From assembly GCF_000188055.2 (NCBI RefSeq), contig NZ_AEUZ02000001.1, forward strand, positions 696,001-760,000: a DNA stretch of 64,000 bases, read 5' to 3'. This stretch comes from Streptococcus urinalis 2285-97 (GTDB taxonomy: Bacteria > Bacillota > Bacilli > Lactobacillales > Streptococcaceae). The notes beneath the pieces are model-generated. The model saw nothing but the letters and a program-made list of their open reading frames with translations. It was not told where the DNA came from and did not search any database. This document shows, in pieces, positions 1 to 59,251 of this stretch (the stretch's first letter is position 1; each line of letters opens with the position of its first letter). A program made the translations under genes and the position numbers.

Positions 1-330
1 CTTAAAACTGAGGACGACATCCGTGAGTGGAATAAGGGGAATATTTCTGTTGGTCTTCTACACCCAGCAAGCGCTGGTCACGGTCTGAATCTTCAAAAGG
101 GTGGGCATCACTTGGTTTGGTTCGGTTTGACTTGGTCATTGGAGTTGTACCAACAAACCAATGCCCGTCTGTGGCGACAAGGGCAACAATCTGAGACTGT
201 AGTCATCCAACACATCGTGACCGAAGGCACCATTGACGAAGAAATTCTCAAAGCACTAGAAAACAAAGATGCTCAACAATCACGTCTAATTGAAGCTGTT
301 AAAGCACAAGTAGGAGGAATGAATGGATAA
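1..330 (+). CDS. SNF2-type helicase, C-terminal fragment (cut by window edge)
   Basis: Open from base 1 to the stop at 328-330, 109 residues visible. The frame shows helicase motif V (HPASAGHGLNLQ) and motif VI (NARLWRQGQ), the signature of the second RecA-like lobe of SNF2/DEAD-like helicases. Phage copies sit at the end of the replication module, and this one overlaps the next regulator gene by 8 bp, suggesting translational coupling. The N-terminal lobe with Walker motifs lies upstream of the window, so intactness cannot be judged. Confidence 0.85.
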   Translation, partial: LKTEDDIREWNKGNISVGLLHPASAGHGLNLQKGGHHLVWFGLTWSLELYQQTNARLWRQGQQSETVVIQHIVTEGTIDEEILKALENKDAQQSRLIEAVKAQVGGMNG

Positions 331-805
331 GGTTGATTATTACTTCCAACATTACCAAGAGGCACAAAGAGAGTTATCAATCGCAAGGAATCTTCTTGAA
401 AACTACAGACCAGTCTCAGAAGATGCCTTTCTGTACTCCCTCGCTATGCAGCAATCAACAGAAGAGAGAATCAAAATGAGTAAGACAAACCATCGCACTG
501 AAAATATGGCTCTTTCTTATCATGAGAAATTCTTAGCTGAAGAGCAGGAGTACAAACAATCGCTTTTTGAAAAGTACTGTAACTTGAAAGCTGATATTGA
601 CTTTTTTAATTTAGCGATTTATTCAGTTGACGAGGTGATTAGGGACATCATTAGTGATTTGGTTATAGTTGGATTAACTTGGGAGGAGCTACTACCAAAG
701 CATAATATTTCACGGATGACTGTCAGTCGCTATCGTCAAAAGGCTATCAAACAAGTCAAAGAGTACTATCGTTTTGCAGGTAAGTCTATGAGTATGGCGG
801 GGTGA
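323..805 (+). CDS. DUF1492/ArpU-like phage transcriptional regulator
   Basis: 160 residues, ATG at 323 inside the end of the helicase gene, with AGGAGG upstream. The N-terminal half is helical and charged. The C-terminal part (about residues 113-145, LTWEELLPKHNISRMTVSRY) is a sigma-region-4-like helix-turn-helix, as in the DUF1492 family that closes the early region of many streptococcal phages and is thought to control late genes. It is followed directly by a six-copy 11-bp repeat array next to a promoter-like sequence, a plausible binding site. That regulatory link is inference. Confidence 0.75.
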   Translation: MDKVDYYFQHYQEAQRELSIARNLLENYRPVSEDAFLYSLAMQQSTEERIKMSKTNHRTENMALSYHEKFLAEEQEYKQSLFEKYCNLKADIDFFNLAIYSVDEVIRDIISDLVIVGLTWEELLPKHNISRMTVSRYRQKAIKQVKEYYRFAGKSMSMAG

Positions 806-807
806 CA

Positions 808-873
808 TGGTACTGGGGTGTTACTAAGGTGGTACTACCCTGTTACTAAGATGTTACTAACCTGGTACTGCTT
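808..873 (+). repeat. Six tandem 11-bp iterons, consensus TGkTACTrnnn
   Basis: Units begin at 808, 819, 830, 841, 852 and 863, exactly 11 bp apart, alternating mostly TGGTACT and TGTTACT cores. One helical turn per unit places all cores on one face of the DNA. The array begins 3 bp after the regulator gene and its last copy occupies the -35 position of an extended -10 promoter at 888-896. Likely an operator or activator array. Confidence 0.8.
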
Positions 874-887
874 TTAATTCTTTGCTG

Positions 888-896
888 TGTTATACT
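888..896 (+). promoter_or_regulatory. Extended -10 promoter abutting the iterons
   Basis: TGTTATACT (TGn plus TATACT) with no good -35; the position 17 bp upstream (868-873) falls in the last iteron. This is the layout expected of an activator-dependent promoter. Transcription would enter the first small-gene cassette. Confidence 0.5.
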
Positions 897-929
897 TAAG
901 ATATCGAAAAAGATTAAAATTTTCCCAGT

Positions 930-995
930 AATGACTGGATTATACTTCTCTTTAGAGCTAATATGTACACAACAAAAGAAGAGGAGAATAATACC
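930..995 (+). promoter_or_regulatory. 66-bp conserved cassette leader, copy 1
   Basis: The 66 bases before the ATG at 996 are nearly the same as those before the ATGs at 5547 and 8011. Shared blocks are AATGACTGGAT at the start, TAGAG then TAATATGTA in the middle, and CAACAAAAGAAGAGGAGAA with the ribosome binding site at the end. The block contains a possible TATACT (941-946) and TAATAT, but no standard promoter spacing is clear. Confidence 0.75.
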
Positions 996-1166
996 ATGAA
1001 AACTCAAATGGAAAAAGACTTATTCGGAATTATCTACAAAAACTTCGGACGCTCAGACTTGGAAACAAGACACAGCGATAACGAAGACTTTCTAGACATT
1101 GCAGTTTGGACCTTGAAAACCGCTCTTGAGGAGGCTTACAAGGCAGGCCAACAATCAGTAAAATAA
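996..1166 (+). CDS. DUF6900-like small protein (cassette 1)
   Basis: 56 residues from ATG 996, chosen because GAGGAG lies 8-13 bases upstream and the conserved leader ends here; an upstream in-frame ATG at 963 lies inside the leader. The sequence (EKDLFGIIYKNF, then ETRHSDNEDFLDIAVWTLKTAL, quoted in part) resembles DUF6900 proteins of streptococcal mobile elements. Function unknown. An intrinsic terminator follows at 1172-1199, so the gene is a self-contained transcription unit inside the prophage. Confidence 0.7.
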   Translation: MKTQMEKDLFGIIYKNFGRSDLETRHSDNEDFLDIAVWTLKTALEEAYKAGQQSVK

Positions 1167-1171
1167 ACCAA

Positions 1172-1199
1172 AGCCTAGCCCATAAGGGTTGGGCTTTTT
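1172..1199 (+). terminator. Intrinsic terminator closing cassette 1
   Basis: AGCCTAGCCC, loop ATAA, GGGTTGGGCT followed by TTTTT. A ten-pair stem with two wobbles, 6 bp after the DUF6900 stop. Confidence 0.75.
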
Positions 1200-1213
1200 G
1201 CGTGGAGGAAAAC

Positions 1214-2250
1214 ATGATTTATACCAGTGAACAAGTTTCAAGCGGACACCCAGATAAGCTCTGTGACCAAATCTCAGATGCTATCGTGACGGAATGTCTC
1301 AAGTACGATAAGAACAGCCGAGTGGCAGTTGAAACACTTATCAAAGATAACCAAGTGGTTGTCGCAGGAGAAGTCTCAACCAAACACTTCTTTAACCTCG
1401 AAGGAATTGTCAAAAGGGTTCTTGAACCTTATGGTATGGAGGATATCATGGTGACTAATCTCCTTGGTGTTCAAAGCCCAGATATTGCTCAAGGGGTCGA
1501 TAGTGGTGGAGCAGGCGACCAAGGCATTATGTTTGGCTATGCGACCGATGAAACACCTGAGTTCTTGCCGCTTCCTTATGTACTTGCGACTCGAGTGCTT
1601 GAGAAACTGATGAATCTTGGACATCCTGGCTTGGGTAAGGATGCCAAGGCTCAAGTGACATACGACTTCGAAAACAAACGTATCGAGACATTCCTTGTGT
1701 CTATACAACACGATGCCGGAGTTGACCTTGCCTCAGTCAAACGCATTGTCACCCAAGCTATGATGTCGGTTGCTCAACGCTACCGTCAGAACCTTGACTT
1801 CAGGGTTCTGGTTAATCCAACTGGTCGCTTTGTTATTGGTGGCACTTACGCTGATGCTGGTGTGACTGGTCGTAAGATTGTAGCAGATACCTACGGTGGC
1901 TTTGCCCACCACGGTGGTGGAGCTTTCTCTGGGAAAGATCCAAGCAAGGTCGACCGTTCAGCCGCCTATATGGCACGGAAGATTGCAAAGGCCTTTGTCC
2001 GTGAAGGGTATGCCAAACGCTGTGAAGTCCAGTTAGCTTATGCTATGGGGTTGCGGAGCCTGCAGGTGTTTATGTGAACACCTTTGGGACAAGTGATTAT
2101 CCTCTTGAACAACTAGTAGGAGGGGTTCGTGAACGCTATGATCTTACCCCACAAGGGATTATCAAGGAGCTGAACCTCTTGGATGTGGACTACACCAAGA
2201 CCACTTGCCTTGGGCATTTCACCAAGCCTTATCTTCCTTGGGAGCAGTAA
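1214..2250 (+). pseudogene. metK: Phage S-adenosylmethionine synthetase, frameshifted
   Basis: ATG 1214 follows GGAGG at 1204-1208. The first frame reads to a TGA at 2075-2077 and carries the MetK signatures GHPDKLCDQISDAI, GGAGDQGIMFGYA and GGGAFSGKDPSKVDRSAAYM. From about 2047 the homologous continuation (VAEPAGVYVNTFG, then PLEQLVGG, ending PYLPWEQ) is in another frame and stops at 2250. One G missing from the run at 2047-2050 explains this. Restored, the protein would be about 345 residues, a little shorter than bacterial MetK. It would supply methyl donor for the methyltransferases downstream. Sequencing error in the G run is the alternative. Confidence 0.8.
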
Positions 2251-2251
2251 G

Positions 2252-2617
2252 ATGCCACGCCGACCAAGCACCCCTTGCAAGCAGCATGGTTGTCCCAACC
2301 TTGTGACCTATGGAAACAAGTACTGCGATGACCACAAAGCCAACCATACCCTTGATGCCAAGTCAACCAAAGCCAAAGGTTACAACTCTCGCTGGAACAA
2401 GGCACGGCTTCGTTACTTAAAGCTCCATCCTCTTTGTGTTTACTGTCAAAGGAAAGGACGACTAACCAAGGCAACGGTGGTTGAGCACGTCACTCCCCAC
2501 CGAGGAGATCAAGAACTCTTCTGGGCCCAAGACAATTGGTAGGCACTTTTCAAGTCTTGTCATGATAGAAAAACTAAGACGGTGGATCTGTACCAGGAGT
2601 ATACCTATCACTTTTGA
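2252..2617 (+). pseudogene. HNH endonuclease with amber codon
   Basis: Starts 1 bp after the metK stop. Shows an N-terminal zinc-binding pattern (CKQHGCPN, YCDDH) and the HNH core (CVYCQRKG, VVEHVTPHRGD). The frame stops at TAG 2540-2542, but continues in frame with the usual family ending (KSCHDRKTKTVD, YQEYTYHF) to TGA 2615-2617. The amber sits where relatives have Gln (CAG to TAG), and one zinc Cys two codons later is Phe. In this phage type the HNH protein works with the terminase at cos, so packaging is affected. Confidence 0.8.
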
Positions 2618-2648
2618 ATAAGAAAAAACCACTCGAAAGTGGTTCGAT

Positions 2649-2969
2649 CTATTTGAAAAGGTGTATCCAATTTTGTTTCTGGTAGAGGACTCTCAGAACG
2701 GCGACGGTTTGGTTGTCATAAACATAGAAGACAAGGTAGTTGCCTGCAATCATCATCTTTAACGGATGCTCCTTTGAAAATTGACGTCCGACACGTTCAG
2801 AGACATCAATGCCAAGACTAGGAACTTCCGCTATTTTTGTGATAGCTTGTTTAATGTTAGACATGGTGTTTTCCGCAGCCTGAGGTGCAAGAAAGTGAGT
2901 GAGAATGTAGTTGTAAATCCCATCCAAGTCACCTTCTGCTTCTGGTGTGATTAATAGATTAAACGCCAT
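2649..2969 (-). CDS. RelE/ParE-type toxin
   Basis: 106 residues on the minus strand, starting 10 bp inside the end of the antitoxin gene. The pattern of an N-terminal LLITPEAEGDLDGIYNYI helix, a central Arg/Lys-rich segment (KMMIAGNYLVFY) and a C-terminal VLRVLYQKQNW is typical of RelE/ParE mRNA-interferase or gyrase-toxin folds; which target applies cannot be told. The pair is inserted between HNH and the candidate cos region and may stabilise the element. Confidence 0.85.
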   Translation of the reverse strand: MAFNLLITPEAEGDLDGIYNYILTHFLAPQAAENTMSNIKQAITKIAEVPSLGIDVSERVGRQFSKEHPLKMMIAGNYLVFYVYDNQTVAVLRVLYQKQNWIHLFK

Positions 2970-3252
2970 ATTTTGCGAACACCTCGTCTAGTGACTTGCC
3001 CTTACCCTCAAGATAACTTTGGTAGCCCTTTTGAATCTCACTATAAAGTTCGTCAATGATACGCTCTTTTTTAGATTGTTCCTCATCTAAAAGGAGTGAT
3101 GGCACTTGCCCTTGTTGAACGACTTGAACTAACAAGTTGTTAAAGAGGGTTGACATGTCTATGTTTTCATAACCAACAATTTCTTTAGCTCTGGCTAGTA
3201 GTTCTTCGTTGGTTCTAAAGCTAAATTGAGAATTTTTAGTAATGGTAGCCAT
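2959..3252 (-). CDS. RelB/DinJ-like antitoxin
   Basis: 97 residues. The ATG at 3252 is chosen over a longer upstream opening because AGGAGG lies 7 bases before it. The N-terminal part (TKNSQFSFRTNEELLARAKEIV) is a ribbon-helix-helix DNA-binding element; the C-terminal part (DEEQSKKERIIDELYSEI) is the toxin-neutralising tail. It is first in the operon and overlaps the toxin gene. A perfect inverted repeat over its promoter is the probable autorepression operator. Confidence 0.85.
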   Translation of the reverse strand: MATITKNSQFSFRTNEELLARAKEIVGYENIDMSTLFNNLLVQVVQQGQVPSLLLDEEQSKKERIIDELYSEIQKGYQSYLEGKGKSLDEVFAKYGV

Positions 3253-3264
3253 TAGTTGACCTCC

Positions 3265-3311
3265 TGTATATATTGTATATACATTATAACAAAACGAAAG
3301 TGAAATCGCAA
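3265..3311 (-). promoter_or_regulatory. Promoter and operator of the toxin-antitoxin operon
   Basis: On the minus strand TTGCGA (3311-3306), 17-bp spacer, TATAAT (3288-3283). A perfect inverted repeat TGTATATA-TTG-TATATACA at 3265-3283 overlaps the -10 and start site, a typical operator for a ribbon-helix-helix antitoxin. Confidence 0.75.
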
Positions 3312-3329
3312 ACCATAATGTCCCTAGGG

Positions 3330-3420
3330 TGAGGGGGGATGCAATCTCTAAAACACGAACGTTAAAAGACCGACGCCCCCTCAAACGTGCATTTTCGCAA
3401 AATTCGTTAGGGGCATACCG
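3330..3420. other. Candidate cos region
   Basis: No gene in 3312-3573. An inverted repeat TGAGGGGG (3330-3337) and CCCCCTCA (3376-3383) encloses an A-rich stretch, followed by GC-rich and TTCG-containing sequence. In cos-type phages with HNH and P27-family small terminase, cos lies between HNH and terminase genes. Here this is the only strongly structured non-coding segment in that interval. Confidence 0.3.
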
Positions 3421-3573
3421 AAAATAGCTAAAAAGTGACGTGAACCATTATGGTGCCAATCTTTCTAGCAGGGTAAGTATCGTTTGCTAGTGTCTGTTTT
3501 AGCTTGTTTTAGAAGGGGGTAAATACATGAAAAATAGAGAAATCAACAATTTTTAGTTCTTGGAGGAAAACAA

Positions 3574-4047
3574 ATGAACGATAATCAGCGGCGAGGCATT
3601 TGGAAACTTAGGCGAGATGGATTTGGCTATGGTGCCATTGCTCAAATGTTAAACCTGTCTCTTGGTTCGGTGAAGCAATATTGCCGTAGACACCTAGAGT
3701 TAAAAGGAATGGGTCAGTTCGTCAAGTATCAGCTTGATGAAGGAGAACGTCCTTATTGTAAGAACTGCATGAAAAAGTTACACCATGCCGTCCAAGGTAG
3801 ACCTAAAAAGTTCTGCTCAAATAGCTGCCGAGCGATTTGGTGGCGAAACCATCAAAGCCAACATGATAAAACAAAAACTGCATACGATGAATTGACTTGC
3901 CAAAACTGTGGCAGGTCTTTTTTATCCTATGCCAACCCAACAAGGAAGTTCTGCGGACACCCTTGTTACGTGGAATATCGATTTAGAAAAGGAGTAACAA
4001 ATGACAACGCAACCCAAGATGGAGATTATGGAACTTTCTCTAAGTGA
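3574..4047 (+). CDS. HTH and zinc-finger phage protein
   Basis: 157 residues from ATG 3574 with GGAGG 7 bases upstream. Residues 1-40 form a sigma-like helix-turn-helix (GFGYGAIAQMLNLSLGSVKQYC). Two treble-clef-like cysteine clusters follow: CKNCMKK with CSNSC, and CQNCGRSF with CGHPC. Such proteins are common next to phage methyltransferases in streptococci and are probably DNA-binding. The 3' end overlaps the next gene by 47 bp in another frame. Confidence 0.6.
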   Translation: MNDNQRRGIWKLRRDGFGYGAIAQMLNLSLGSVKQYCRRHLELKGMGQFVKYQLDEGERPYCKNCMKKLHHAVQGRPKKFCSNSCRAIWWRNHQSQHDKTKTAYDELTCQNCGRSFLSYANPTRKFCGHPCYVEYRFRKGVTNDNATQDGDYGTFSK

Positions 4048-5257
4048 TTTAAAACCAGCCTCTTATAACCCTCGAAAGAAACTGAAGAAGGGTGATAAAG
4101 AGTACGAAAAGATTAAACAAAGCCTACTCAAGTTTGGCTATGTTGACCCTATCATTGTCAACGAGGATTTGACAGTCATTGGGGGTCACCAACGCTTGAC
4201 GGTATTGAAAGACCTCGAGTATGAAACGGCTAAGTGCGTCATTGTCTCTCTGTCTAAGGAAGATGAAAAGGCACTGAATATTGCCCTCAATAATATCACT
4301 GGTCAATGGGACGACCAGCTTCTAGCAGACTTGCTTTTGGACTTGCAAGAGTCTGATTTCAACCTTGACCTGACTGGTTTTGAACCCCCAGAGATTGATG
4401 ACATTCTCTCCAACGTCCACGACAAGGATTTGTCTGAAGACGACTTTGATATGGAAGAAGAGTTAAAGAAACCAACGGTCGCAAGACATGGAGACCTCTG
4501 GCAACTTGGAAAGCACCGAGTGATTTGTGGAGACTCAACTAAGGCAGAAACCTACGACCAATTGCTAGGGGATAAGAAAGCCAATCTCGTTGTGACGGAC
4601 CCGCCTTACAATGTTGATGTGGAAGAGACAGCTGGAAAAATCCTCAATGATAACATGTCTGACGGTGACTTCTATCAATTCCTCTACGACATGTTTACCC
4701 AAGTGGAAAGTCACATGGAAGCTGATGCGTCTATTTATGTTTTCCATGCGGATACGGAAGGTCTGAATTTCCGTAAGGCTTTTAAGGACGCTGGTTTTTA
4801 TTTGAGTGGTTGTTACATTTGGAAGAAGAACTCACTGGTTCTCGGACGTAGTCCCTACCAATGGCAACACGACCCCTGTCTCTTTGGTTGGAAACAAAAG
4901 GGAAAACACCAGTGGTTCAGTGACCGTAAGCAGACCACCATTTGGGAATATGACCGTCCTAAGTCAAGTAAAGACCACCCAACCATGAAGCTGATTCAGC
5001 TTTTGGCGTATCCTATTCAAAACTCTTCCATGCGAGGAACGTTAATCCTTGATCCCTTTCTTGGTTCAGGCTCAACCCTCATGGCAGCTGACCAAACTGG
5101 TCGAGTATGCTACGGCATTGAACTGGATGAAAAGTTTGTGGATGTGATTGTCAAACGCTTCATGGAGTCAACTGGTAATAGGGAAGTGACAGTACTCCGA
5201 AACGGTGAGACTTTGACCTATGACCAAGCACTAGAAGTAATGGAGGGATACTCATGA
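4001..5257 (+). CDS. ParB-domain DNA methyltransferase
   Basis: 418 residues. The N-terminal 110 residues are a ParB/Srx-like domain (LKPASYNPRKK, VIGGHQRLTVL). The methyltransferase domain has the catalytic DPPY (about residue 200) and the SAM-binding DPFLGSGST near the C-terminus, the order of a beta-class N6-adenine or N4-cytosine enzyme. No restriction partner is next to it, so it is an orphan enzyme, likely protecting phage DNA or regulating genes. Target sequence unknown. It appears intact, unlike many neighbours. Confidence 0.85.
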   Translation: MTTQPKMEIMELSLSDLKPASYNPRKKLKKGDKEYEKIKQSLLKFGYVDPIIVNEDLTVIGGHQRLTVLKDLEYETAKCVIVSLSKEDEKALNIALNNITGQWDDQLLADLLLDLQESDFNLDLTGFEPPEIDDILSNVHDKDLSEDDFDMEEELKKPTVARHGDLWQLGKHRVICGDSTKAETYDQLLGDKKANLVVTDPPYNVDVEETAGKILNDNMSDGDFYQFLYDMFTQVESHMEADASIYVFHADTEGLNFRKAFKDAGFYLSGCYIWKKNSLVLGRSPYQWQHDPCLFGWKQKGKHQWFSDRKQTTIWEYDRPKSSKDHPTMKLIQLLAYPIQNSSMRGTLILDPFLGSGSTLMAADQTGRVCYGIELDEKFVDVIVKRFMESTGNREVTVLRNGETLTYDQALEVMEGYS

Positions 5258-5460
5258 CCCTAACCTTTCTTGATTTTTTTGCAGGAGTGGGGTGCTTTCG
5301 TCGTGGGTTGAAGTTGGCAGGGATAACCTGCTTTGGGTACTACGTAGATGAAATCCAGACAGGTATTGATAAAGGTCAGTTCACAGATATGGAAGTGACT
5401 TATATCACCGAAGATACCAACCAGCTGTGGGAAGAAGTTGCTCCGACACTATCAAAATAA
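5254..5460 (+). pseudogene. C5-cytosine methyltransferase start fused to an unrelated end
   Basis: 68 residues. The first 28 (TFLDFFAGVGCFRRGLKLAG) are motif I of a DNA cytosine-5 methyltransferase; the enzyme should be 300 residues or more. The rest (VDEIQTGIDKGQFTDMEV, then YITEDTN) has no methyltransferase features and looks like the tail of another small phage protein. The reading frame is preserved across the join, so an internal deletion is likely. The ATG overlaps the end of the previous gene by 4 bp. Confidence 0.65.
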
Positions 5461-5480
5461 TCTGCAAAAAAATAAGTAGA

Positions 5481-5546
5481 AATGACTGGATATAAGTCTT
5501 TTCTAGAGCTAATATGTAACCAACAAAAGAAGAGGAGAACAAAACC
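5481..5546 (+). promoter_or_regulatory. 66-bp conserved cassette leader, copy 2
   Basis: Matches copies at 930-995 and 7945-8010 over its full length; it is closest to copy 3 in the last 30 bases (AACCAACAAAAGAAGAGGAG identical). Begins 20 bp after the stop of the truncated methyltransferase and ends at ATG 5547. Confidence 0.75.
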
Positions 5547-5801
5547 ATGACAACACAAACAACCCTAGAAAATGCTTACAGCCTTTACCCAGCAACCGCA
5601 AGCATTGTGCCATTCAAGAACTGGTTGATTATAGCCTACCAAAGCTACAAAGGTGTTAACCTTCACATCTTCGAAACAGTTGAAAGCCTTGACGAGTTTT
5701 CAAAGGGAGAACGACGCTTCAACCTTATCATTGATTCAGAAGAAACCTTCGAGGACCAAGGACATGCAGTTAAATGGGCATTTGAAACATTAGGAGCATA
5801 G
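5547..5801 (+). CDS. Small unknown phage protein (cassette 2)
   Basis: 84 residues, ATG at the end of the conserved leader with GAGGAG upstream. Acidic overall, with a mixed alpha/beta look (PFKNWLIIAYQSYKG, LIIDSEETFEDQG). No family recognised. It is 1 bp from the DUF4314 gene, so the two are probably co-transcribed and end at the terminator at 6011-6037. Confidence 0.6.
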   Translation: MTTQTTLENAYSLYPATASIVPFKNWLIIAYQSYKGVNLHIFETVESLDEFSKGERRFNLIIDSEETFEDQGHAVKWAFETLGA

Positions 5802-5802
5802 G

Positions 5803-6012
5803 ATGAACGACAAGATTCTAAACCGAATCAAGTCCACCTACCCAGAGGGGACAAGGGTGAGATTAGTCCAGATGGATGACCCTCGCCCAGTTCCAGTAGG
5901 GACACTTGGCACGGTTCTTGATGTGGATGACATTGGTTCACTTATTGTCTATTGGGACAATGGGCAGAGCTTAAACGTATTGTACGGTATTGATAGTGTT
6001 GAAAAAATCTAA
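5803..6012 (+). CDS. DUF4314-like small protein
   Basis: 69 residues. The motif GTRVRLVQMDDPRPVPVGTL followed by GTVLDVDDIG and a Trp/Asp beta segment is typical of DUF4314, a short beta-barrel-like protein found in phages and conjugative elements, function unknown. Second gene of cassette 2; its stop lies at the base of the terminator hairpin. Confidence 0.7.
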   Translation: MNDKILNRIKSTYPEGTRVRLVQMDDPRPVPVGTLGTVLDVDDIGSLIVYWDNGQSLNVLYGIDSVEKI

Positions 6013-6037
6013 AAGGTTTCTGTTTGAAGCCTTTTTC
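6011..6037 (+). terminator. Intrinsic terminator closing cassette 2
   Basis: AAAAGGTTTC, short loop, GAAGCCTTTTT. It lies just before the small-terminase ribosome binding site. Confidence 0.6.
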
Positions 6038-6061
6038 TTGTACCAAAAAGGGGGTGAGACC

Positions 6062-6535
6062 GTGGCAATTAGAGGGCGAAAACCAAAGCCTACCAATTTG
6101 AAAATACTTGAAGGAAACCCTGGGAAGAGACCTCTACCGACTAACGAGGTCAAACCCAAACATAAAGCCCCACGTTGCCCACAGTGGCTCGAAGACGATG
6201 CTAAGAAGGAATGGAAACGGATGGGTAAAATCCTCGAACAAATGGGCATATTAACGGAGATGGATCTGACAGCCTTCGCAGGCTATTGCCAAGCCTATGC
6301 ACGTTGGAAGGAAGCAGAGGAGTTTCTCTCTAAGCATGGTTCCATCATCAAGACCCCAAATGGATATCTCCAGCAAGTGCCACAGGTATCCATCAGTCAG
6401 ACCAACCTGAAAATCATGCTTAAGTTCTGTGAGCAGTTTGTTTTAACACCTTCAGCTCGTAATCGTTTAGCGACCATGGACGCAGAGGTTGGTACTGGTG
6501 ATGAGATGGAGGATTTGTTAGGAGGTATTCGATGA
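6062..6535 (+). CDS. Terminase small subunit, P27 family
   Basis: 157 residues from GTG 6062, chosen because GGGGGTGA lies just upstream and the family begins with an RGRKPKPTNLKILEGNPGK motif. The rest (CPQWLEDDAKKEWKRMG, then LTEMDLTAFAGYCQAYARW) matches phage terminase small subunits of the P27 type that recognise cos DNA. The stop overlaps the start of the large subunit by 4 bp. This subunit looks intact, its partner does not. Confidence 0.85.
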   Translation: MAIRGRKPKPTNLKILEGNPGKRPLPTNEVKPKHKAPRCPQWLEDDAKKEWKRMGKILEQMGILTEMDLTAFAGYCQAYARWKEAEEFLSKHGSIIKTPNGYLQQVPQVSISQTNLKIMLKFCEQFVLTPSARNRLATMDAEVGTGDEMEDLLGGIR

Positions 6536-7906
6536 CTTATCACTATGAACCGAGTCCCTTTATGCTTCCGACGTCTCATTACGACAAGGCAAAGGCTGAT
6601 AGGGCAGTGACCTTTATCAATAACCTTTCCCACACCAAAGGTAAGTGGGCAGGGAAAAAATTTGATTTGTTGCCGTGGCAGGAACAGATAGTTCGTGACC
6701 TCTTTGGGATTGTTAAGGAAGATGGTAATCGTCAGTTTCTGACAGCCTACATCGAGATTCCAAAGAAAAACGGCAAGTCAGAGCTTGCCGCAGCAATTGC
6801 CCTTTATCTTTTGTATGCTGACAATGAAGCCAGTGCGGAAGTTTATGGGGCGGCTTGTGATCGTAACCAAGCTTCCATTGTATTTGACGTTGCCAAACAA
6901 ATGGTTCTCATGAGCCGACCGCTTGAGAAACGCTCCAAGATTATGGGAGCGACAAAGCGGATAGTGAACTATTCCAACGCTGGTTTTTACCAGGTTCTCT
7001 CAGCTGAGACAGGAACCAAGCACGGACTTAACGTGTCGGGGCTTGTCTTTGATGAGATCCATGCCCAACCCAATCGCCATCTCTATGATGTCTTAACCAA
7101 GGGTTCAGGGGATGCCAGGGAACAACCTCTATTTTTCATCATCACAACAGCTGGAACTGATAAAAACTCTATCTGTTATGAACTTCATACCAAGGCACTT
7201 GATATTCTCAAAGGTCGAAAGAAAGATACGTCTTTTTATCCTGTGGTGTATGGTTTATCAGATGAAGATGATTGGAATGACGAATCCAACTGGCTAAAAG
7301 CTAATCCATCACTTGGTCATACGATTGGAATTGACCGTGTTCGTGAAGCCTACCAACAGGCTCTTGATAACCCAGCAGAGGAGAATGTCTTTAAGCAGCT
7401 CCGTCTCAATATGTGGACGAGTTCTAGTGTGGCTTGGATACCTGAACATGTGTATGCCAAAGGGAATGAATGACCCGATTGACTATGAGGCACTTAAAGG
7501 TCGTGACTGTTACGCTGGGCTTGACCTTTCTAGCACCTCAGACATCACAGCCTTTGTCTTGGTCTTTCCACCACGACACAGTGAGGAAAACCACATCATC
7601 TTGCCCTTCTTTTGGTTACCAAAAGATACTTTGGAGCTGAGGTGTCGAAGAGACCATGTCCTTTACGATGTTTGGGAAAGGCAGGGTTACATCAAGACAA
7701 CAGAAGGGAATGTCGTTCACTATGGTTTCATCGAATCCTTTATTGAACAGCTCTCTGAAACCTATCACATCAAGGAGATTGCCTATGACCGCTGGAATGC
7801 AACACAGATGGTCCAAAACCTTGAGGGCATGGGGCTTGACCGCTGCATTCGCCACCAAGGTGATGAAGCCAGTGTCTATGATGAGCGAGGGATATTGAGT
7901 TTTTAA
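6532..7906 (+). pseudogene. Terminase large subunit, frameshift plus internal deletion
   Basis: The first frame (6532-7473) has the ATPase part: IEIPKKNGKSELAAA (Walker A type), VFDEIHAQPNR (Walker B) and the ITTAGT coupling motif. It stops at 7471-7473 after a GAATGAATG tandem repeat; removing 4 bp would join it to the frame reading DPIDYEALKGRDCYAGLDLSS, the start of the nuclease domain. That frame then jumps at about 7841-7860 from GLDRC to the family's last residues (SVYDERGILSF), so roughly 100 residues of nuclease domain are missing. The motor-nuclease cannot be functional. Confidence 0.85.
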
Positions 7907-7944
7907 TTTTAAAATTGTATTAAATTCTTCAAAATTATATCAGA

Positions 7945-8010
7945 AATGACTGGATAAGTCTCCCCTGTAGAGTTAATATGTAACCAACAAAAGAAGAGGA
8001 GAACAAGACC
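7945..8010 (+). promoter_or_regulatory. 66-bp conserved cassette leader, copy 3
   Basis: Full-length match to the leaders at 930-995 and 5481-5546, ending at ATG 8011. The middle (TCTCCCCTGTAGAGTTAATATG) varies most; the first 11 and last 28 bases are almost unchanged. Confidence 0.75.
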
Positions 8011-8355
8011 ATGGCAACAAGAGCACGTATTGGATTGGTAACTAAAAATAAAACCGCAAAAACTATCGAGGTAGCTTACGAAGGTTACCCAGAATACACT
8101 GGAGAGCTTCTCAAGAAACACTTCAAATCAGAAAAAGCAATTCGAGAATTACTTCAGAAGGGCGATATTATTCAACTGGAAAAAGCTCTAGCAGACATCG
8201 AACACGATGATCTACAAGGTCAAGCCCAGCACCATCGCTTTATTGGTAGCCTTAGCCAATTGACTGAGGACACCATGGCAGAATACATTTATCTTTTCCA
8301 AGAAGGCGGCAACAAATGGTATTGCTTTGAAGAAGGTAGATTGGTAACAATGTAG
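8011..8355 (+). CDS. Small unknown phage protein (cassette 3)
   Basis: 114 residues, ATG directly after the leader, GAGGAG upstream. Basic N-terminus (MATRARIGLVTKNKTAKTIE) with a beta-rich look, a helical charged middle and an aromatic C-terminus (EGGNKWYCFEEGRLVTM). No family recognised. It sits between terminase and portal, where nothing is needed for packaging, and has its own leader and terminator. Confidence 0.6.
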   Translation: MATRARIGLVTKNKTAKTIEVAYEGYPEYTGELLKKHFKSEKAIRELLQKGDIIQLEKALADIEHDDLQGQAQHHRFIGSLSQLTEDTMAEYIYLFQEGGNKWYCFEEGRLVTM

Positions 8356-8366
8356 GAAAAGACTAA

Positions 8367-8392
8367 AGGCACTTCAAACGAGGTGCTTTTTT
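8367..8392 (+). terminator. Intrinsic terminator closing cassette 3
   Basis: AGGCACTTC, loop AAAC, GAGGTGCTTTTTT; a clean stem with a T run, 12 bp after the stop codon and 25 bp before the portal start. Confidence 0.8.
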
Positions 8393-8416
8393 CGTACCTA
8401 AAAATAAGGAGGGACT

Positions 8417-9712
8417 ATGGGATTACTTGATGTACTAGGACTAAAAAGGGCAAGGGCTGAACCTGTTGCTCGAAATAGCTATGAGGGGCAGGATTTTTCC
8501 TATCTCTTTGGACGGACCACCAGTGGTGAAACTGTAGATGAATTTAAGGCTATGCAGACGACGGCCGTTTATGCTTGTGTGCGTATCCTTGCTGAAGCAG
8601 TAGCGTCACTTCCTATTCACGTCTATGAACGGACAGAAACTGGGAAGGAGAAAAAGCTGGACCACCCACTGTACTTTCTTCTTCATGATGAGCCAAATCC
8701 AGAAATGTCATCCTTTATTTTTCGAGAAACCATGATGAGTCATTTGTTAATATGGGGAAATGCTTATGTGCAGATTATCAGAGATAAGGGTGGACGAGTG
8801 ATTAGTCTCTATCCACTCTTGCCTGATAAGATGTCTGTCCATCGTGATGATAGTGGGAGACTTTACTACAAATACCAGCGGCAGACAGAAGAAAATCCTA
8901 ATTTCGATGATAAGGGAACTGTCTTATTGAAGCAGGAAGATATTCTTCATGTGCCTGGTCTTGGGTTTGATGGCTTGATTGGTTACTCACCAATTGCGAT
9001 GGCTAAAAATGCGATTGGGATGACCCTAGCTACCGAAAACTATGGGGCATCTTTCTTTAAAAATGGCGCTAATCCAGGTGGTGTTTTGGAGCACCCAGGT
9101 ATCCTTAAAGACCCTAAACGAGTGAGAGATTCTTGGAATGCCGTTTACAATGGGGTCATAAATGCGCATAAAGTGGCTGTACTCGAAGAAGGAATGAAGT
9201 ATACTCAAGTTGGAATTCCCCCTGAAGAAGCCCAATTTTTACAGACACGGAAGTTTTAGATTAATGAAATTGCACGACTTTACCGTATCCCACCACACAT
9301 GGTTGGTGATTTGGAGAAGTCGTCTTTTTCAAATATCGAACAACAGTCACTTGAATTTGTCAAATATACCTTAGACCCTTGGGTAGTTCGTTTAGAACAA
9401 GCCTTCAAGAGGTCTCTTTTTTTACCCGAAGAGAAGAAACGCTACCTTATCAAGTTCAATGTAGACGGTTTGCTTCGTGGCGATTACCAAATCCGTATGA
9501 ATGGTTATGCCATCGCACGGCAAAATGGCTGGCTTTCGACTAATGACATTCGTGAGTTAGAAGACTTGAACTTGCTCTCTGATGAAGAAGGCGGAAACCT
9601 CTACTTGATTAACGGAAACATGACCAAATTAAAAGATGCTGGTGGTTTCATGAAGCAACCGACAGAAACGGAACCAGCTGAAGACCCACCAGAGGAGGAA
9701 AAAGATGAGTAA
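8417..9712 (+). pseudogene. Portal protein (HK97 type) with amber codon
   Basis: ATG 8417 with AGGAGG upstream. Residues 1-280 are typical phage portal (TTAVYACVRILAEAVASLP, then HPLYFLLHDEPNPEMS, and IIRDKGGRVISLYPL). The frame stops at TAG 9257-9259 and continues in the same frame with INEIARLYRIPPHMVGDLE and FSNIEQQSLEF to 9712. The expected residue is Gln, so CAG to TAG is the simplest cause. Whole length would be about 431. The product that ends at the amber lacks the clip and crown parts and could not form a portal ring. Confidence 0.85.
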
Positions 9713-24171: not shown

Positions 24172-24196
24172 GCCACATTCATAGCGGCTTATATGG

Positions 24197-24202
24197 TATA
24201 AT
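24197..24202 (+). promoter_or_regulatory. Extended -10 promoter of the small toxin gene
   Basis: TGGTATAAT (TGn plus TATAAT at 24197-24202), weak -35. Gives a leader of about 95 nt before the toxin TTG. A segment of this leader (AAGACGGTGGCTC, 24220-24232) is the near-exact reverse complement of GAGCTACCGTCTT at 24455-24467. Confidence 0.6.
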
Positions 24203-24302
24203 TTAATGGTAGAAAAGTGAAGACGGTGGCTCCTAGATCCTGAAAGAAAGAGGTGATGCCTATGGGCAATTCATCAAAATCTGACGGAAAGGGGGAGCAC
24301 TT

Positions 24303-24407
24303 TTGACTGCGTTTGAAGTTGTGCAAACCATCTTTGGTTTTGGTAGCTTTACCATTTCTTTGATTGGTTTGTGCTATAAAATCTTCAGTGACAAAGGCAA
24401 AAAATAA
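24303..24407 (+). CDS. Holin-like membrane toxin of a type I toxin-antitoxin locus
   Basis: 34 residues from TTG 24303, with GGGGGAG 7 bp upstream. The sequence (AFEVVQTIFGFGSFTISLIG, then a charged KIFSDKGKK tail) is one membrane helix with a basic end and matches the putative holin-like toxin (Hol_Tox) family. It is too short for ordinary ORF calling. The stop lies in the left arm of a bidirectional terminator, and a strong promoter fires toward it from the other strand, which is the architecture of type I systems such as Fst or TxpA. It could stabilise the prophage. Toxicity not shown by sequence. Confidence 0.72.
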   Translation: MTAFEVVQTIFGFGSFTISLIGLCYKIFSDKGKK

Positions 24408-24446
24408 TCCGTCCCCACTTTTGCTCAGGTAGGACGGATTATTTTC
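24399..24446. terminator. Bidirectional terminator shared by toxin and antisense RNA
   Basis: Perfect 12-bp stem AATAATCCGTCC (24403-24414) and GGACGGATTATT (24432-24443). Rightward it is followed by TTCG, leftward by six U (24404-24399). It ends both converging transcripts. Confidence 0.8.
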
Positions 24447-24515
24447 GTTTAACAGAGCTACCGTCTTTTTAACGGTTCTGCATTGGAGTTGGTTTGCAGA
24501 CCAGCTCCTTTTTCT
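24399..24515 (-). ncRNA. Candidate antisense RNA antitoxin
   Basis: Predicted leftward transcript of about 115 nt from a promoter at 24522-24549 to the bidirectional terminator. It starts with a hairpin GGAGCTGGT/ACCAACTCC, has a short CCGT/ACGG hairpin, and overlaps the toxin mRNA 3' end including the stop codon. No ORF of interest. Inferred from promoter, terminator and toxin context. Confidence 0.6.
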
Positions 24516-24521
24516 ATGTTC

Positions 24522-24549
24522 ATTATAACATACTGGCAATAATTTTCAA
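24522..24549 (-). promoter_or_regulatory. Promoter for the antisense RNA
   Basis: Minus strand TTGAAA (24549-24544), 16-bp spacer, TATAAT (24527-24522). Confidence 0.7.
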
Positions 24550-24703: not shown

Positions 24704-24732
24704 TTGACTTATCTTCCCTTTAGAGTGATATA
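24704..24732 (+). promoter_or_regulatory. Promoter of the serine recombinase operon
   Basis: TTGACT (24704-24709), 17-bp spacer, GATATA (24727-24732), 30 bp before the ATG. The spacer contains CCCTTTAGAG, which resembles the CTTTAGAG block of the cassette leaders. Confidence 0.6.
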
Positions 24733-24761: not shown

Positions 24762-26003
24762 ATGGCAGTAAGGTTAATTAAGGCAAAAAGTGAACAGAAA
24801 AAGCAACGTGTCTGTGCCTACGTCAGGGTATCAACGACTAACAGCAGTCAGCTGGATTCCCTTGAAAACCAGAAGACTTATTTTGAAACCCTTTATGCCA
24901 ATAGTGAGGACGTTGACTTTCTCGGTGTCTATTACGACAAAGGGATTTCAGGGGCAAAAGAGAAGCGACCGAGTTTTCAAGCCATGCTTGAAGCTTGTAG
25001 GCAGGGTCAGATTGATTTGATACACACCAAGTCCATTTCACGGTTTTCGAGGAATACCATGACGGTACTTGAAGTCAGTCGTGAGTTGAAAGTCTTAGGT
25101 GTAGGTATCTACTTTGAAGAACAGAACATCAATACCCTATCCAATGAAGGAGAGGTCATGCTTTCGGTTTTGGCGAGTTTGTCCGAAGAAGAACTGGAGA
25201 GTATGAGTACCAACCAACGTTGGGCGTTTCAGAAGAAGTTTCAACGTGGGGAGATGGTCAGCAACACCAAGCGTTTTATGGGTTATGATGTGGATGACGA
25301 TGGCGAGTTGGTTATCAATGAAGCAGAAGCACAAATTGTGAGACGGATTTTCCATCTTTACCTTGATGGCATGGGTATGCACCGCATTGCAAAACTCTTA
25401 AATGAAGAAGGTGTACCTACAGTCTCAAATGCGAAATGGCATAATACGACAGTGGGGCATATGTTACGAAACGAGAAGTATAAAGGAGCAGCATTATTAC
25501 AGAAGACCTATCTTCATGGGGTTAATGGTAAAAGACGGTTGAATCAAGGCAAAGTAGCCCAGTACTTGATTGAAGATAACCATGAGCCTATTGTTTCAAA
25601 AGAAGTGTGGCAGGCTGTTCAAGATAAACTTGATAGCAACACTTGGAAACAGGGACCGAATAAGCACTACCGTTTTACGAGCATGCTTAGGTGTCAGTAT
25701 TGTGGTTCAACCCTCAAGCGACAGGTGTCCTACAAGAAACAGATTGTCTGGTCTTGCTCAAAGTACATCAAAGAAGGCAAGGCTTCCTGCCAAGGCATGC
25801 GTGTGCCTGAGAAAGCTATTGAAGATTGGAGACTTAAGACTCCTGTAACAGTGATAGAAAGGAACGAATATGGGCAAAAACATTACAGTTATTCCAGCCA
25901 AGAAAATGCAGTTGACAGTCACCCATCAGCAAGTCACCAAAATCAGAGTGGCCGCCTATTGTCGAGTGTCCACCGACCAAGACGAACAGCTATCAAGCTA
26001 TGA
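24762..26003 (+). CDS. Large serine recombinase 1
   Basis: 413 residues, GAAAGGAAA before ATG. N-terminal resolvase domain with catalytic Ser in CAYVRVSTTNSSQLDSLENQ and the SRFSRNT motif; then the Recombinase domain (INEAEAQIVRRIFHLYLDG) and a zinc ribbon (CQYCGSTLKRQ, CSKYIKEGKASC). It would catalyse integration between attP and the rumA site, working with the second recombinase. Its last 134 bp overlap the next gene in another frame. Appears complete. Confidence 0.88.
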   Translation: MAVRLIKAKSEQKKQRVCAYVRVSTTNSSQLDSLENQKTYFETLYANSEDVDFLGVYYDKGISGAKEKRPSFQAMLEACRQGQIDLIHTKSISRFSRNTMTVLEVSRELKVLGVGIYFEEQNINTLSNEGEVMLSVLASLSEEELESMSTNQRWAFQKKFQRGEMVSNTKRFMGYDVDDDGELVINEAEAQIVRRIFHLYLDGMGMHRIAKLLNEEGVPTVSNAKWHNTTVGHMLRNEKYKGAALLQKTYLHGVNGKRRLNQGKVAQYLIEDNHEPIVSKEVWQAVQDKLDSNTWKQGPNKHYRFTSMLRCQYCGSTLKRQVSYKKQIVWSCSKYIKEGKASCQGMRVPEKAIEDWRLKTPVTVIERNEYGQKHYSYSSQENAVDSHPSASHQNQSGRLLSSVHRPRRTAIKL

Positions 26004-58057: not shown

Positions 58058-58129
58058 GTCCCCTTAGTTCAATGGATATAACACCTCCCTCCTAAGGAGT
58101 AGTTGCTGGTTCGATTCCGGCAGGGGACA
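58058..58129 (+). tRNA. tRNA-Arg (anticodon CCT)
   Basis: 72 nt without encoded CCA. Acceptor stem GTCCCCT/AGGGGAC with discriminator A, D arm GTT/AAC, anticodon loop CTCCTAA reading CCT, T arm GCTGG-TTCGATT-CCGGC. Base 27 (C) faces base 43 (T), so the anticodon stem has four pairs and a mismatch. The tyrosine integrase of the second prophage lies 43 bp downstream in the opposite direction, so the 3' half is the likely attachment site. Confidence 0.93.
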
Positions 58130-58171
58130 TATAAATAATGTTAAAAGCCTTTATTTAAAAGGCTTTTTGTT

Positions 58172-59251
58172 TTATTCAATTAAATTTAGGGGCACAAAAG
58201 GGGCAGTTTGATTATTTATCAATTCTTTCATATTAACAGTAGTGTGACTGTAAATAGATAATGTTGTCTTAGGGTCTGAGTGTCCTACTCTATCCATAAT
58301 TGCGTTTAGAGGTATACCTTTTTCTGCCAAAAACGAAATGTGCGAATGCCTGAATAAATGTGTGTGGTAATCACCGTAAATTTTTAGGCGCTTATTGATA
58401 TACGCATTTAAAATTGGCAAACCTTTTGAGTTTGGGAAAACAAATTCACTCATTTTATTTTGTCGATTAATGATTTCTATAATGTTATCAGATACCGAAA
58501 TTTTCCGAGTTGATTTTTTGGTCTTTGTTGTCGTGATTTCTCTAGTGTGGAAATCGTAAGTCGCATTAATCAAAATTTCTTTATTTTCAAAATCAATCTT
58601 GTCATAAGTCAAGCAAGCTAATTCACCGTACCTCATTCCAGTCAAAAACATTAATAAAACGATATCTGAGAGTTTTTGTTCATCATTGGCTATCATTCTA
58701 CCGCAGAGGTCGTAAACCTCGTTAGAAGTTAAATAAAGTACCTTTTCAGGCATATATTCTTCTTTTGGTTTAGGGACTAAAACATTGTCGGTTGGATTGC
58801 TTGTCAAGTAGTCCATTTGTATAGCATAAGCAAAGATAGCATGTAGTCTTTTTCTGCATTTGTGCGTAACATGATAAGAATTGTTTTTTAATAGTTTTTC
58901 AATAAGCAGTCTGACATCACGTTTAGTTAGCTTGCTAATAATCGTTTCATCTGGCAACACGGTTGCTATATGACTGTCAGACACTAAATAACCACGTTTT
59001 GTGGAATCTTTGACCGTCGGAATCCATTGATTTAAATACTCACGCTTTAATTCACCATATGTCATTTCGGAATGATCTCGTGTAGCAAGCTTATCTTCAA
59101 TTTTTTCTTGCAAGATAAGATTAGCTTTTTTCTGCGCTTGGCTCGAATTTTTATCTAATGTGACAGACACTTTTTTGTATTTTTTGGTCAATGGGTCAGT
59201 ATAACGTTCAATATATTTAAACTTTCCATTTGATAATTCTTCAATCCACAT
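58172..59251 (-). CDS. int: Tyrosine integrase
   Basis: 359 residues, GAAAGG before ATG. N-terminal Arm-binding domain (ERYTDPLTKKYKKVSVTLDK), core-binding SAM-like domain, and catalytic domain with Arg in FLTGMRYGELACLTYDKIDF (in part), HLFRHSHISFLAE, GHSDPKTTLSIYSHT containing His/Arg/His and the Tyr nucleophile. It would insert the element in the tRNA-Arg gene. No excisionase is evident in the region seen. Confidence 0.93.
   Translation of the reverse strand: MWIEELSNGKFKYIERYTDPLTKKYKKVSVTLDKNSSQAQKKANLILQEKIEDKLATRDHSEMTYGELKREYLNQWIPTVKDSTKRGYLVSDSHIATVLPDETIISKLTKRDVRLLIEKLLKNNSYHVTHKCRKRLHAIFAYAIQMDYLTSNPTDNVLVPKPKEEYMPEKVLYLTSNEVYDLCGRMIANDEQKLSDIVLLMFLTGMRYGELACLTYDKIDFENKEILINATYDFHTREITTTKTKKSTRKISVSDNIIEIINRQNKMSEFVFPNSKGLPILNAYINKRLKIYGDYHTHLFRHSHISFLAEKGIPLNAIMDRVGHSDPKTTLSIYSHTTVNMKELINNQTAPFVPLNLIE

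What the first reader, a model, noticed from the sequence alone, without database searches (positions are those of the whole stretch)
930..8355. Three scattered small genes share one 66-bp leader and each has its own terminator
Leaders at 930-995, 5481-5546 and 7945-8010 are the same length to the base and nearly identical, while the genes they precede are unrelated (DUF6900-like, an 84-residue protein plus DUF4314, a 114-residue protein). Each unit ends in an intrinsic terminator. They look like portable cassettes under one control signal, placed in three different modules of the phage. Anti-restriction, anti-defence or takeover functions are plausible.
Basis: partly seen in the sequence, partly recalled or inferred. 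Interest (0 to 1): 0.75.

Follow-up and report, generated by a model that had tools for sequence, protein, structure and literature searches.

The report
Shared phage promoter driving scattered cassettes
Three small phage genes that lie far apart each sit behind what looks like the same two-part promoter, a signal that related phages of streptococci and gut bacteria place in front of many unrelated small genes and, in a variant form, in front of the enzyme that integrates the phage.

Summary
Three 66-bp leaders (54-56 of 66 identical pairwise) precede unrelated genes (DUF6900; Nmad4 + DUF4314; a 114-aa family), and each unit ends in a terminator-like hairpin. The leader is best read as a promoter: box 1 (TRACTGGATA), fixed spacing, box 2 (AGAGNTAATATG), with -35-like and -10-like hexamers 17 nt apart. 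It is no local duplication: the core occurs in IMG/VR contigs and GTDB genomes of Streptococcus, Syntrophomonas and two Bacillota MAGs, before roughly 30 protein clusters. In streptococcal phages each slot mostly keeps its own gene family, so 'portable' fits the signal better than these genes. A variant box lies just before the prophage's own serine recombinase (24704) and recurs between zinc-finger/HTH genes and recombinases elsewhere in Bacillota. Two phage-encoded proteins could read it: a region-4-like 'transcriptional regulator' (323-805) and the zinc-finger/HTH protein (3574-4047). My data do not separate them, nor exclude plain host sigma-A use; tests on strictly new loci are positive but weaker than the first ones. 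The neighbours (metK, methyltransferases, Nmad4) make a DNA-modification or anti-restriction role plausible but untested. The prophage resembles Ca. Heliusviridae and is decayed.

The parts
930..995 (+). Leader 1: box 1 at 932-941 with -35-like TGGATT 936-941; AGAG 954-957; -10-like TAATAT 959-964; RBS; ATG at 996
996..1166 (+). Cassette 1 gene, 56 aa, DUF6900
   Evidence: PF21841 5.6e-20
1170..1197 (+). Terminator-like hairpin of cassette 1, followed by T-run
   Evidence: -19.4 kcal/mol, z -3.7;
5481..5546 (+). Leader 2: -35-like TGGATA 5487-5492, -10-like TAATAT 5510-5515
5547..5801 (+). Cassette 2 first gene, 84 aa, Nmad4 (nucleotide modification associated domain 4)
   Evidence: PF18756 2.3e-29
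5803..6012 (+). Cassette 2 second gene, 69 aa, DUF4314
   Evidence: PF14192 4.3e-27
6011..6035 (+). Terminator-like hairpin of cassette 2
   Evidence: -10.9 kcal/mol, z -4.2; not listed
7945..8010 (+). Leader 3: -35-like TGGATA 7951-7956, -10-like TAATAT 7974-7979
8011..8355 (+). Cassette 3 gene, 114 aa, phrog_1987, no Pfam match
8365..8390 (+). Terminator-like hairpin of cassette 3
   Evidence: -14.0 kcal/mol, z -4.6; not listed
323..805 (+). 160-aa regulator with sigma region-4-like C-terminal HTH (phrog_36, 'transcriptional regulator'); first candidate for reading the promoter
   Evidence: (weak Sigma70_r4, E 0.083)
3574..4047 (+). 157-aa HTH + zinc-finger protein (phrog_2308, unknown function); second candidate for reading the promoter
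   Evidence: (weak Sigma70_r4_2, E 0.0018)
24704..24732 (+). Variant box TTGACT-17-GATATA with TTTAGAGT, 58 nt before the serine recombinase start
   Evidence: 4 matches in the window, mean 0.44 in 50 Markov shuffles
24762..26003 (+). Large serine recombinase (integrase, phrog_95)

Best explanation
The leader is a promoter plus ribosome-binding site of a mobile-element-specific class: RCTKGMTA as an extended -35, 17 nt to a -10-like [TG]A.NAT, with AGAG just before it. Phages of the Ca. Heliusviridae type put it in front of short, terminator-ended accessory cassettes in a DNA-modification island between the replication genes and the structural genes, and use a variant of it for the integrase operon. 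Host RNA polymerase probably reads it with help from a phage-encoded factor: either the region-4-like regulator encoded just before slot 1 or the zinc-finger/HTH protein. The cassettes would then be expressed together, separately from the structural operon. Shown: the repeated element, its register, its partners, the hairpins and the linkage to both regulator genes. Inferred: that it is a promoter, that a phage factor reads it, and what the cassettes do.
For: Oriented, start codons mostly 60-80 nt (range 54-139) downstream. 34 clusters behind it. Streptococcus: 20 of 147 genomes have the regulator at E<1e-40 (23 at 1e-5); 18 of these 20 have the promoter with at most 1 mismatch (reversed control 0), the other 2 have 17/19 sites nearby; Fisher p 1e-16. 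Zinc-finger gene ends 154-164 nt upstream of 34 of 39 recombinase-type sites. Selecting on the zinc-finger protein in 398 Bacillota genomes (20 of its 23 places outside the own genome fetched), 16 of 20 loci carry the generalised box 148-164 nt downstream, against 2 of 5434 control windows. On 45 loci sharing no exact 60-mer with earlier loci: generalised box 20, canonical form 12, either 28, reversed control 0; after removing near-identical loci 16, 9 and 21 of 37. 34 of 36 such boxes are followed by a recombinase-like frame.
Against: No transcript data. Both regulator genes are linked to the promoter by shared ancestry, so co-occurrence is not proof of control. My first 'held-out' set (23 and 19 of 56) was not clean: 12 of the 56 share sequence with earlier loci. 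In the strictly new set 17 of 45 loci have neither box, and the regulator predicts the canonical form only modestly: 5 of 9 with it, 7 of 36 without; 2 of 6 and 7 of 31 after removing near-identical loci. The regulator's HTH differs much between phages sharing an almost identical leader. The zinc-finger gene is absent from the held stretch at 15 of 22 leader sites with at least 5 kb on both sides, e.g. L047. The regex was drawn from those same loci. Clostridial sites scoring 15-16 of 19 are near background: 27 hits at or above 15 in 1.84 Mb of Markov sequence. 0 of 43 genomes in one class-level sample matched.
Confidence: 0.55

Rival explanations
1. It is an ordinary host sigma-A promoter inherited with the cassettes; no dedicated phage factor is needed and the conservation reflects descent within related phages.
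For: 17-nt spacing fits sigma-A geometry; the recombinase variant has TTGACT and TTGATA forms; UTRs are alike within a lineage.
Against: Conservation extends beyond the hexamers (TRAC, AGAG) and persists between streptococcal and other elements whose UTRs differ. The hexamers are poor sigma-A matches (3-4 of 6 and 4 of 6, by inspection), and the sigma-70 scan of 700-8600 listed none of the three at this register.
Confidence: 0.28
2. The boxes are operators for a phage repressor that silences cassettes and integrase in the lysogen, promoter activity being secondary.
For: Repeated oriented sites at gene starts resemble ESAS sites, for which promoter and operator roles were both proposed (PMC3203893, passages).
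Against: No dyad symmetry seen in the boxes by eye; strict promoter-like spacing; a repressor linked to the sites was not searched for.
Confidence: 0.1
3. The leader is kept mainly as a short homology that lets phages swap cassettes by recombination.
For: Homology starts just before box 1 and ends about codon 3 (by inspection). One slot-1 spacer group differs by 1 nt from the slot-3 type, and the window's slot-1 spacer is also close to it (by eye).
Against: Spacers are otherwise slot-specific and genes mostly stay in their slot among streptococcal phages.
Confidence: 0.05

Closest known systems
Start-associated and extended start-associated sequences (SAS/ESAS) of cluster K mycobacteriophages (PMC3203893; passages seen)
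   Same: A repeated element before the starts of many unrelated small phage genes, kept with particular gene families; promoter or operator role proposed.
   Different: ESAS is an imperfect 17-bp inverted repeat beside an SAS. Here there are two different boxes at fixed spacing, no dyad seen, and a variant serves the integrase.
Late-gene activators of Gram-positive phages (RinA/ArpU type; recalled, no call)
   Same: A small regulator with a region-4-like HTH (phrog_36, 'transcriptional regulator') encoded at the end of the replication genes, directly upstream of the candidate target.
   Different: The linked promoter here is repeated and drives terminator-ended accessory cassettes.
Ca. Heliusviridae phages (PMC9226167; passages seen)
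   Same: Streptococcus phages form Ca. alphaheliusvirinae; gut records labelled Ca. Heliusvirales carry homologous regulator and zinc-finger genes in a similar order.
   Different: The word 'promoter' occurs 0 times in that paper's text.
Prophages Phi1207.3 and Phim46.1 of S. pyogenes (PMC4260502, passages seen; L089)
   Same: Same kinds of genes in order: metK, HNH, DNA methylase, C5-methylase, terminase; two leaders in the Phim46.1 stretch.
   Different: 'promoter' and 'regulator' occur 0 times in the Phi1207.3 paper's text.

Membership tests
Ca. Heliusviridae-type temperate phage | Shared gene set with the described streptococcal and gut members | tested here: inconclusive
   Similar order and homologous regulator and zinc-finger proteins in records labelled Ca. 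Heliusvirales; the nine shared genes mentioned in the paper were not tested one by one.
Sigma-A (sigma-70) promoter | TTGACA / TATAAT-like hexamers at 16-18 nt | tested here: inconclusive
   Spacing 17; hexamers 3-4 of 6 and 4 of 6 by inspection; sites not listed at this register by the scan.
Sigma-A (sigma-70) promoter | Transcription start 7-10 nt downstream of the -10 box | not testable with these tools
   No RNA data.
ESAS of cluster K mycobacteriophages | Imperfect 17-bp inverted repeat next to an SAS | tested here: not met
   No shared inverted repeat among the three leaders: their folds differ, and those of leaders 2 and 3 are no better than shuffles; otherwise by inspection.
RNA leader / riboswitch | Conserved secondary structure or Rfam family | tested here: not met
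   No Rfam match at gathering score at the leaders; z -2.6, +0.4, +0.2. Leader 1 alone folds better than most shuffles.
Known anti-defence gene | Match to a described anti-restriction or anti-CRISPR family | tested here: not met
   Pfam, PHROGs, NCBIfam and PADLOC give DUFs, Nmad4, phrogs of unknown function, and weak matches (REase_II E 0.0048; biotin-protein ligase E 0.0077). No dedicated anti-CRISPR library was searched.

The most novel reading that the evidence does not exclude
A mobile-element-wide promoter class with its own element-encoded reader (zinc-finger/HTH protein or region-4-like regulator) acts as a plug-in expression signal across Bacillota phages and integrase modules, so that any small gene landing behind it joins one regulon with DNA-modification, anti-restriction and integration genes.
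Probability: 0.35. Interest if true: 0.75.

Novelty: new variant of a known kind. Interest (0 to 1): 0.56.

Why it matters
A single recognisable signal gives a handle for listing accessory genes of a common gut and streptococcal phage group, many of unknown function, by searching for the signal instead of the gene. If a phage factor reads it, timing and regulator can be tested at once with a reporter, and the shared variant before the integrase suggests when in the life cycle the cassettes act.

Tried and rejected
Riboswitch or structured leader: rejected. Recent local duplication: rejected by partners and distribution. Patterns with a miscounted spacer gave zero hits; redone with the right count. 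Class-level genome samples were small (43, 13 and 63 genomes). The regulator alignment could not be used for a scan; a single clostridial copy gave 4 loci, each with promoter and zinc-finger gene. The pooled figure (promoter in 42 of 46 loci with the regulator, 11 of 40 without) is biased because it includes loci of contigs first found by promoter pattern; one search gives the clean, weaker figure. Helix/box covariation was not tested formally; L349 and L351 have nearly the same recognition helix but different -10 boxes. The zinc-finger model (mean pLDDT 81.8, pTM 0.47) has a well-predicted three-helix N-terminus, but its fold search never ran. The model of the 114-aa protein was not finished.

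Papers. Searches without any paper holding the terms; one search gave one unrelated paper. Searches listed 12 of 184 and 8 of 123 papers; none was opened. One search listed 6, of which one was looked into; one search listed one, not opened; one search listed 19, of which one was looked into; one search listed 6, of which one was looked into.

Counts are places, not independent events: many loci are near-identical phages, and loci of the DNA search were chosen by the pattern, which biases the spacing table. In one search, 22 of 365 places had no frame. In one search, short pieces of two broken zinc-finger copies (L355, L364) were left out, and L355 had only 101 nt downstream; it counts as a miss. 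In one search, 26 of 82 loci were dropped by contig name from a list that held no metagenome contigs; redid this by sequence. One search's output was cut and was used only for its hit list.
Full report
What is there. The core pattern matches three times with none expected. Pairwise identity over 66 nt is 54, 55 and 56: the boxes and the ribosome-binding stretch are alike, and a 12-nt spacer is not. The genes behind them are unrelated: DUF6900; Nmad4 followed by DUF4314; and a 114-aa protein without a Pfam match. Hairpins with T-runs close all three units. The strict pattern occurs only at these three places in the genome. Relaxed forms show two more, at 1490619-1490652 and 1496495-1496528, in a second, related prophage of the same genome.

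How far it spreads. The core was found in 64 IMG/VR stretches and 20 GTDB stretches, mainly Streptococcus but also Syntrophomonas zehnderi OL-4 and two Bacillota MAGs. In 147 Streptococcus genomes, own genome included, a first relaxed pattern matches 18 and a broader one 23, of which 17 carry two or more copies; the reversed control matches none. In 398 Bacillota genomes the first relaxed pattern matched 2, one being the own genome, and a broader one matched 0 of 43 in one class-level sample, so the streptococcal form is rare outside the genus. In phage records a distant BLAST of leader 1 at E up to 10 listed 278 records, 82 of them Streptococcus; many of the others are likely chance.

What lies behind it. 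In the held loci 365 places have the two hexamers 17 nt apart; other spacings gave one place, but the loci had mostly been chosen by fixed-spacing patterns. Their downstream frames give 234 distinct proteins in 34 BLAST clusters, 22 places having no frame. Named ones include DUF6900, Nmad4, DUF4314, amidoligase, DUF7678 and DUF7698 and large serine recombinases (24 of the 25 proteins of that cluster match the window's recombinase). A few clusters are probably chance. In L047 four copies stand between methyltransferases and terminase, among genes resembling amidoligase, DUF4314, DUF7698 and Nmad4 (by eye).

Slots. Javan638 and Javan558 carry the same occupants in the same places: behind the regulator and before metK, behind the C5-methyltransferase, and behind the large terminase gene. 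In 48 of 52 DUF6900 places the regulator lies within 450 nt upstream. Spacers are mostly slot-specific. Slot 3 can hold other things: prophage 2 has a two-gene pair resembling a toxin-antitoxin system there (by eye), and Phim46.1 a gene annotated as a killer protein.

Who might read it. Candidate one is the 160-aa protein at 323-805 (phrog_36, transcriptional regulator), found by tblastn in 110 phage records, 90 of them streptococcal, 16 named for clostridial hosts and 4 unnamed. Of 147 Streptococcus genomes 20 have it at E<1e-40 and 18 of these have the promoter; the other two have 17/19 sites close by. Five genomes have the promoter pattern without it: G005 and G120 exact, G043, G115 and G142 with one mismatch and doubtful. 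Candidate two is the zinc-finger/HTH protein at 3574-4047 (phrog_2308). It ends 154-164 nt upstream of the promoter in 34 of 39 recombinase-type places, has a similar recognition helix across elements, and is present in G120's stretch, which lacks candidate one.

Reverse tests. Selecting on the zinc-finger protein in 398 Bacillota genomes gave 18 genomes, own included. In 16 of 20 fetched loci a generalised box lies 148-164 nt downstream, against 2 of 5434 control windows and 0 of 397 windows behind long frames. The regex was drawn from these loci, so I repeated it. A first set of 56 loci gave 23 canonical and 19 generalised, 39 with either, but 12 of the 56 share sequence with earlier loci. 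On 45 loci that share no exact 60-mer with them the figures are 12, 20 and 28, with 17 having neither and the reversed control 0; with one locus per near-identical group 9, 16 and 21 of 37. 34 of 36 boxes behind zinc-finger genes are followed by a recombinase-like frame. In 34 distinct boxes a C stands before the -35 in 94 per cent although the regex did not ask for it, as it does in the leaders. Between the zinc-finger gene and the box is a short gene; the copy in prophage 2 is SHOCT_2. The window's own recombinase has such a box at 24704, one of four matches in the window against 0.44 expected.

Which candidate. In the strictly new set the canonical form occurs in 5 of 9 loci with candidate one and 7 of 36 without (2 of 6 and 7 of 31 after removing near-identical loci), while the recombinase-type box occurs in 0 of 9 and 20 of 36. 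That would fit candidate one reading the leader form and the zinc-finger protein reading the recombinase form, but the numbers are small and shared descent explains much. Against candidate one, its HTH varies widely between phages with near-identical leaders. Against candidate two, only 7 of 22 well-covered leader sites show it within the held stretch. I therefore do not choose.

What the cassettes do. The island contains metK, an N6-methyltransferase and a C5-methyltransferase (truncated here), next to Nmad4. That fits DNA modification or protection against restriction. No anti-defence match was found beyond one weak REase_II hit. Function remains inferred.

Known or new. The phage group is described as Ca. 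Heliusviridae (PMC9226167, passages; the word promoter does not occur). The Phi1207.3 paper does not use the words promoter or regulator (PMC4260502, passages). The nearest analogue I saw described is SAS/ESAS in mycobacteriophages (PMC3203893, passages). I found no paper on this promoter, mostly from listings; subscription papers are not held, so this is not proof of absence.

Noticed in passing
window 1202-2250, 5254-5460, 6532-7906, 8417-9712: The prophage is decayed: metK is in two pieces, the C5-methyltransferase is cut short, and the terminase large subunit and portal frames are interrupted, while the cassette genes are open. Javan638 (S. urinalis 2285-97) is annotated with metK, terminase and portal likewise in two pieces.
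   Followed up: partly
G000 1464000-1499000 (L195, L470): A second, related prophage in the same genome with an uninterrupted terminase large subunit frame, two zinc-finger/HTH paralogues and two adjacent serine recombinases.
   Followed up: partly
window 24187-24373 (+) and 24436-24525 (-): Rfam matches rli28 (76.7 bits) and RatA (49.5 bits, just over the threshold of 49) between the lysin and the recombinase: possibly a type I toxin-antitoxin pair.
   Followed up: no
window 2649-3255 (-): A two-gene pair resembling a RelB/RelE-type toxin-antitoxin system on the opposite strand inside the modification island; named by eye.
   Followed up: no
L195 7086-7710 (-): Slot 3 of the second prophage holds a different two-gene toxin-antitoxin-like pair (by eye) instead of the 114-aa cassette.
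   Followed up: no
window 58058-59251: A tRNA gene next to a tyrosine-integrase-like gene and, further on, a repressor-like gene (both by eye): perhaps the start of another integrated element.
   Followed up: no
L083, L108: The leader is intact but the Nmad4 gene behind it has lost its start codon, so the cassette looks dead behind a conserved promoter.
   Followed up: no
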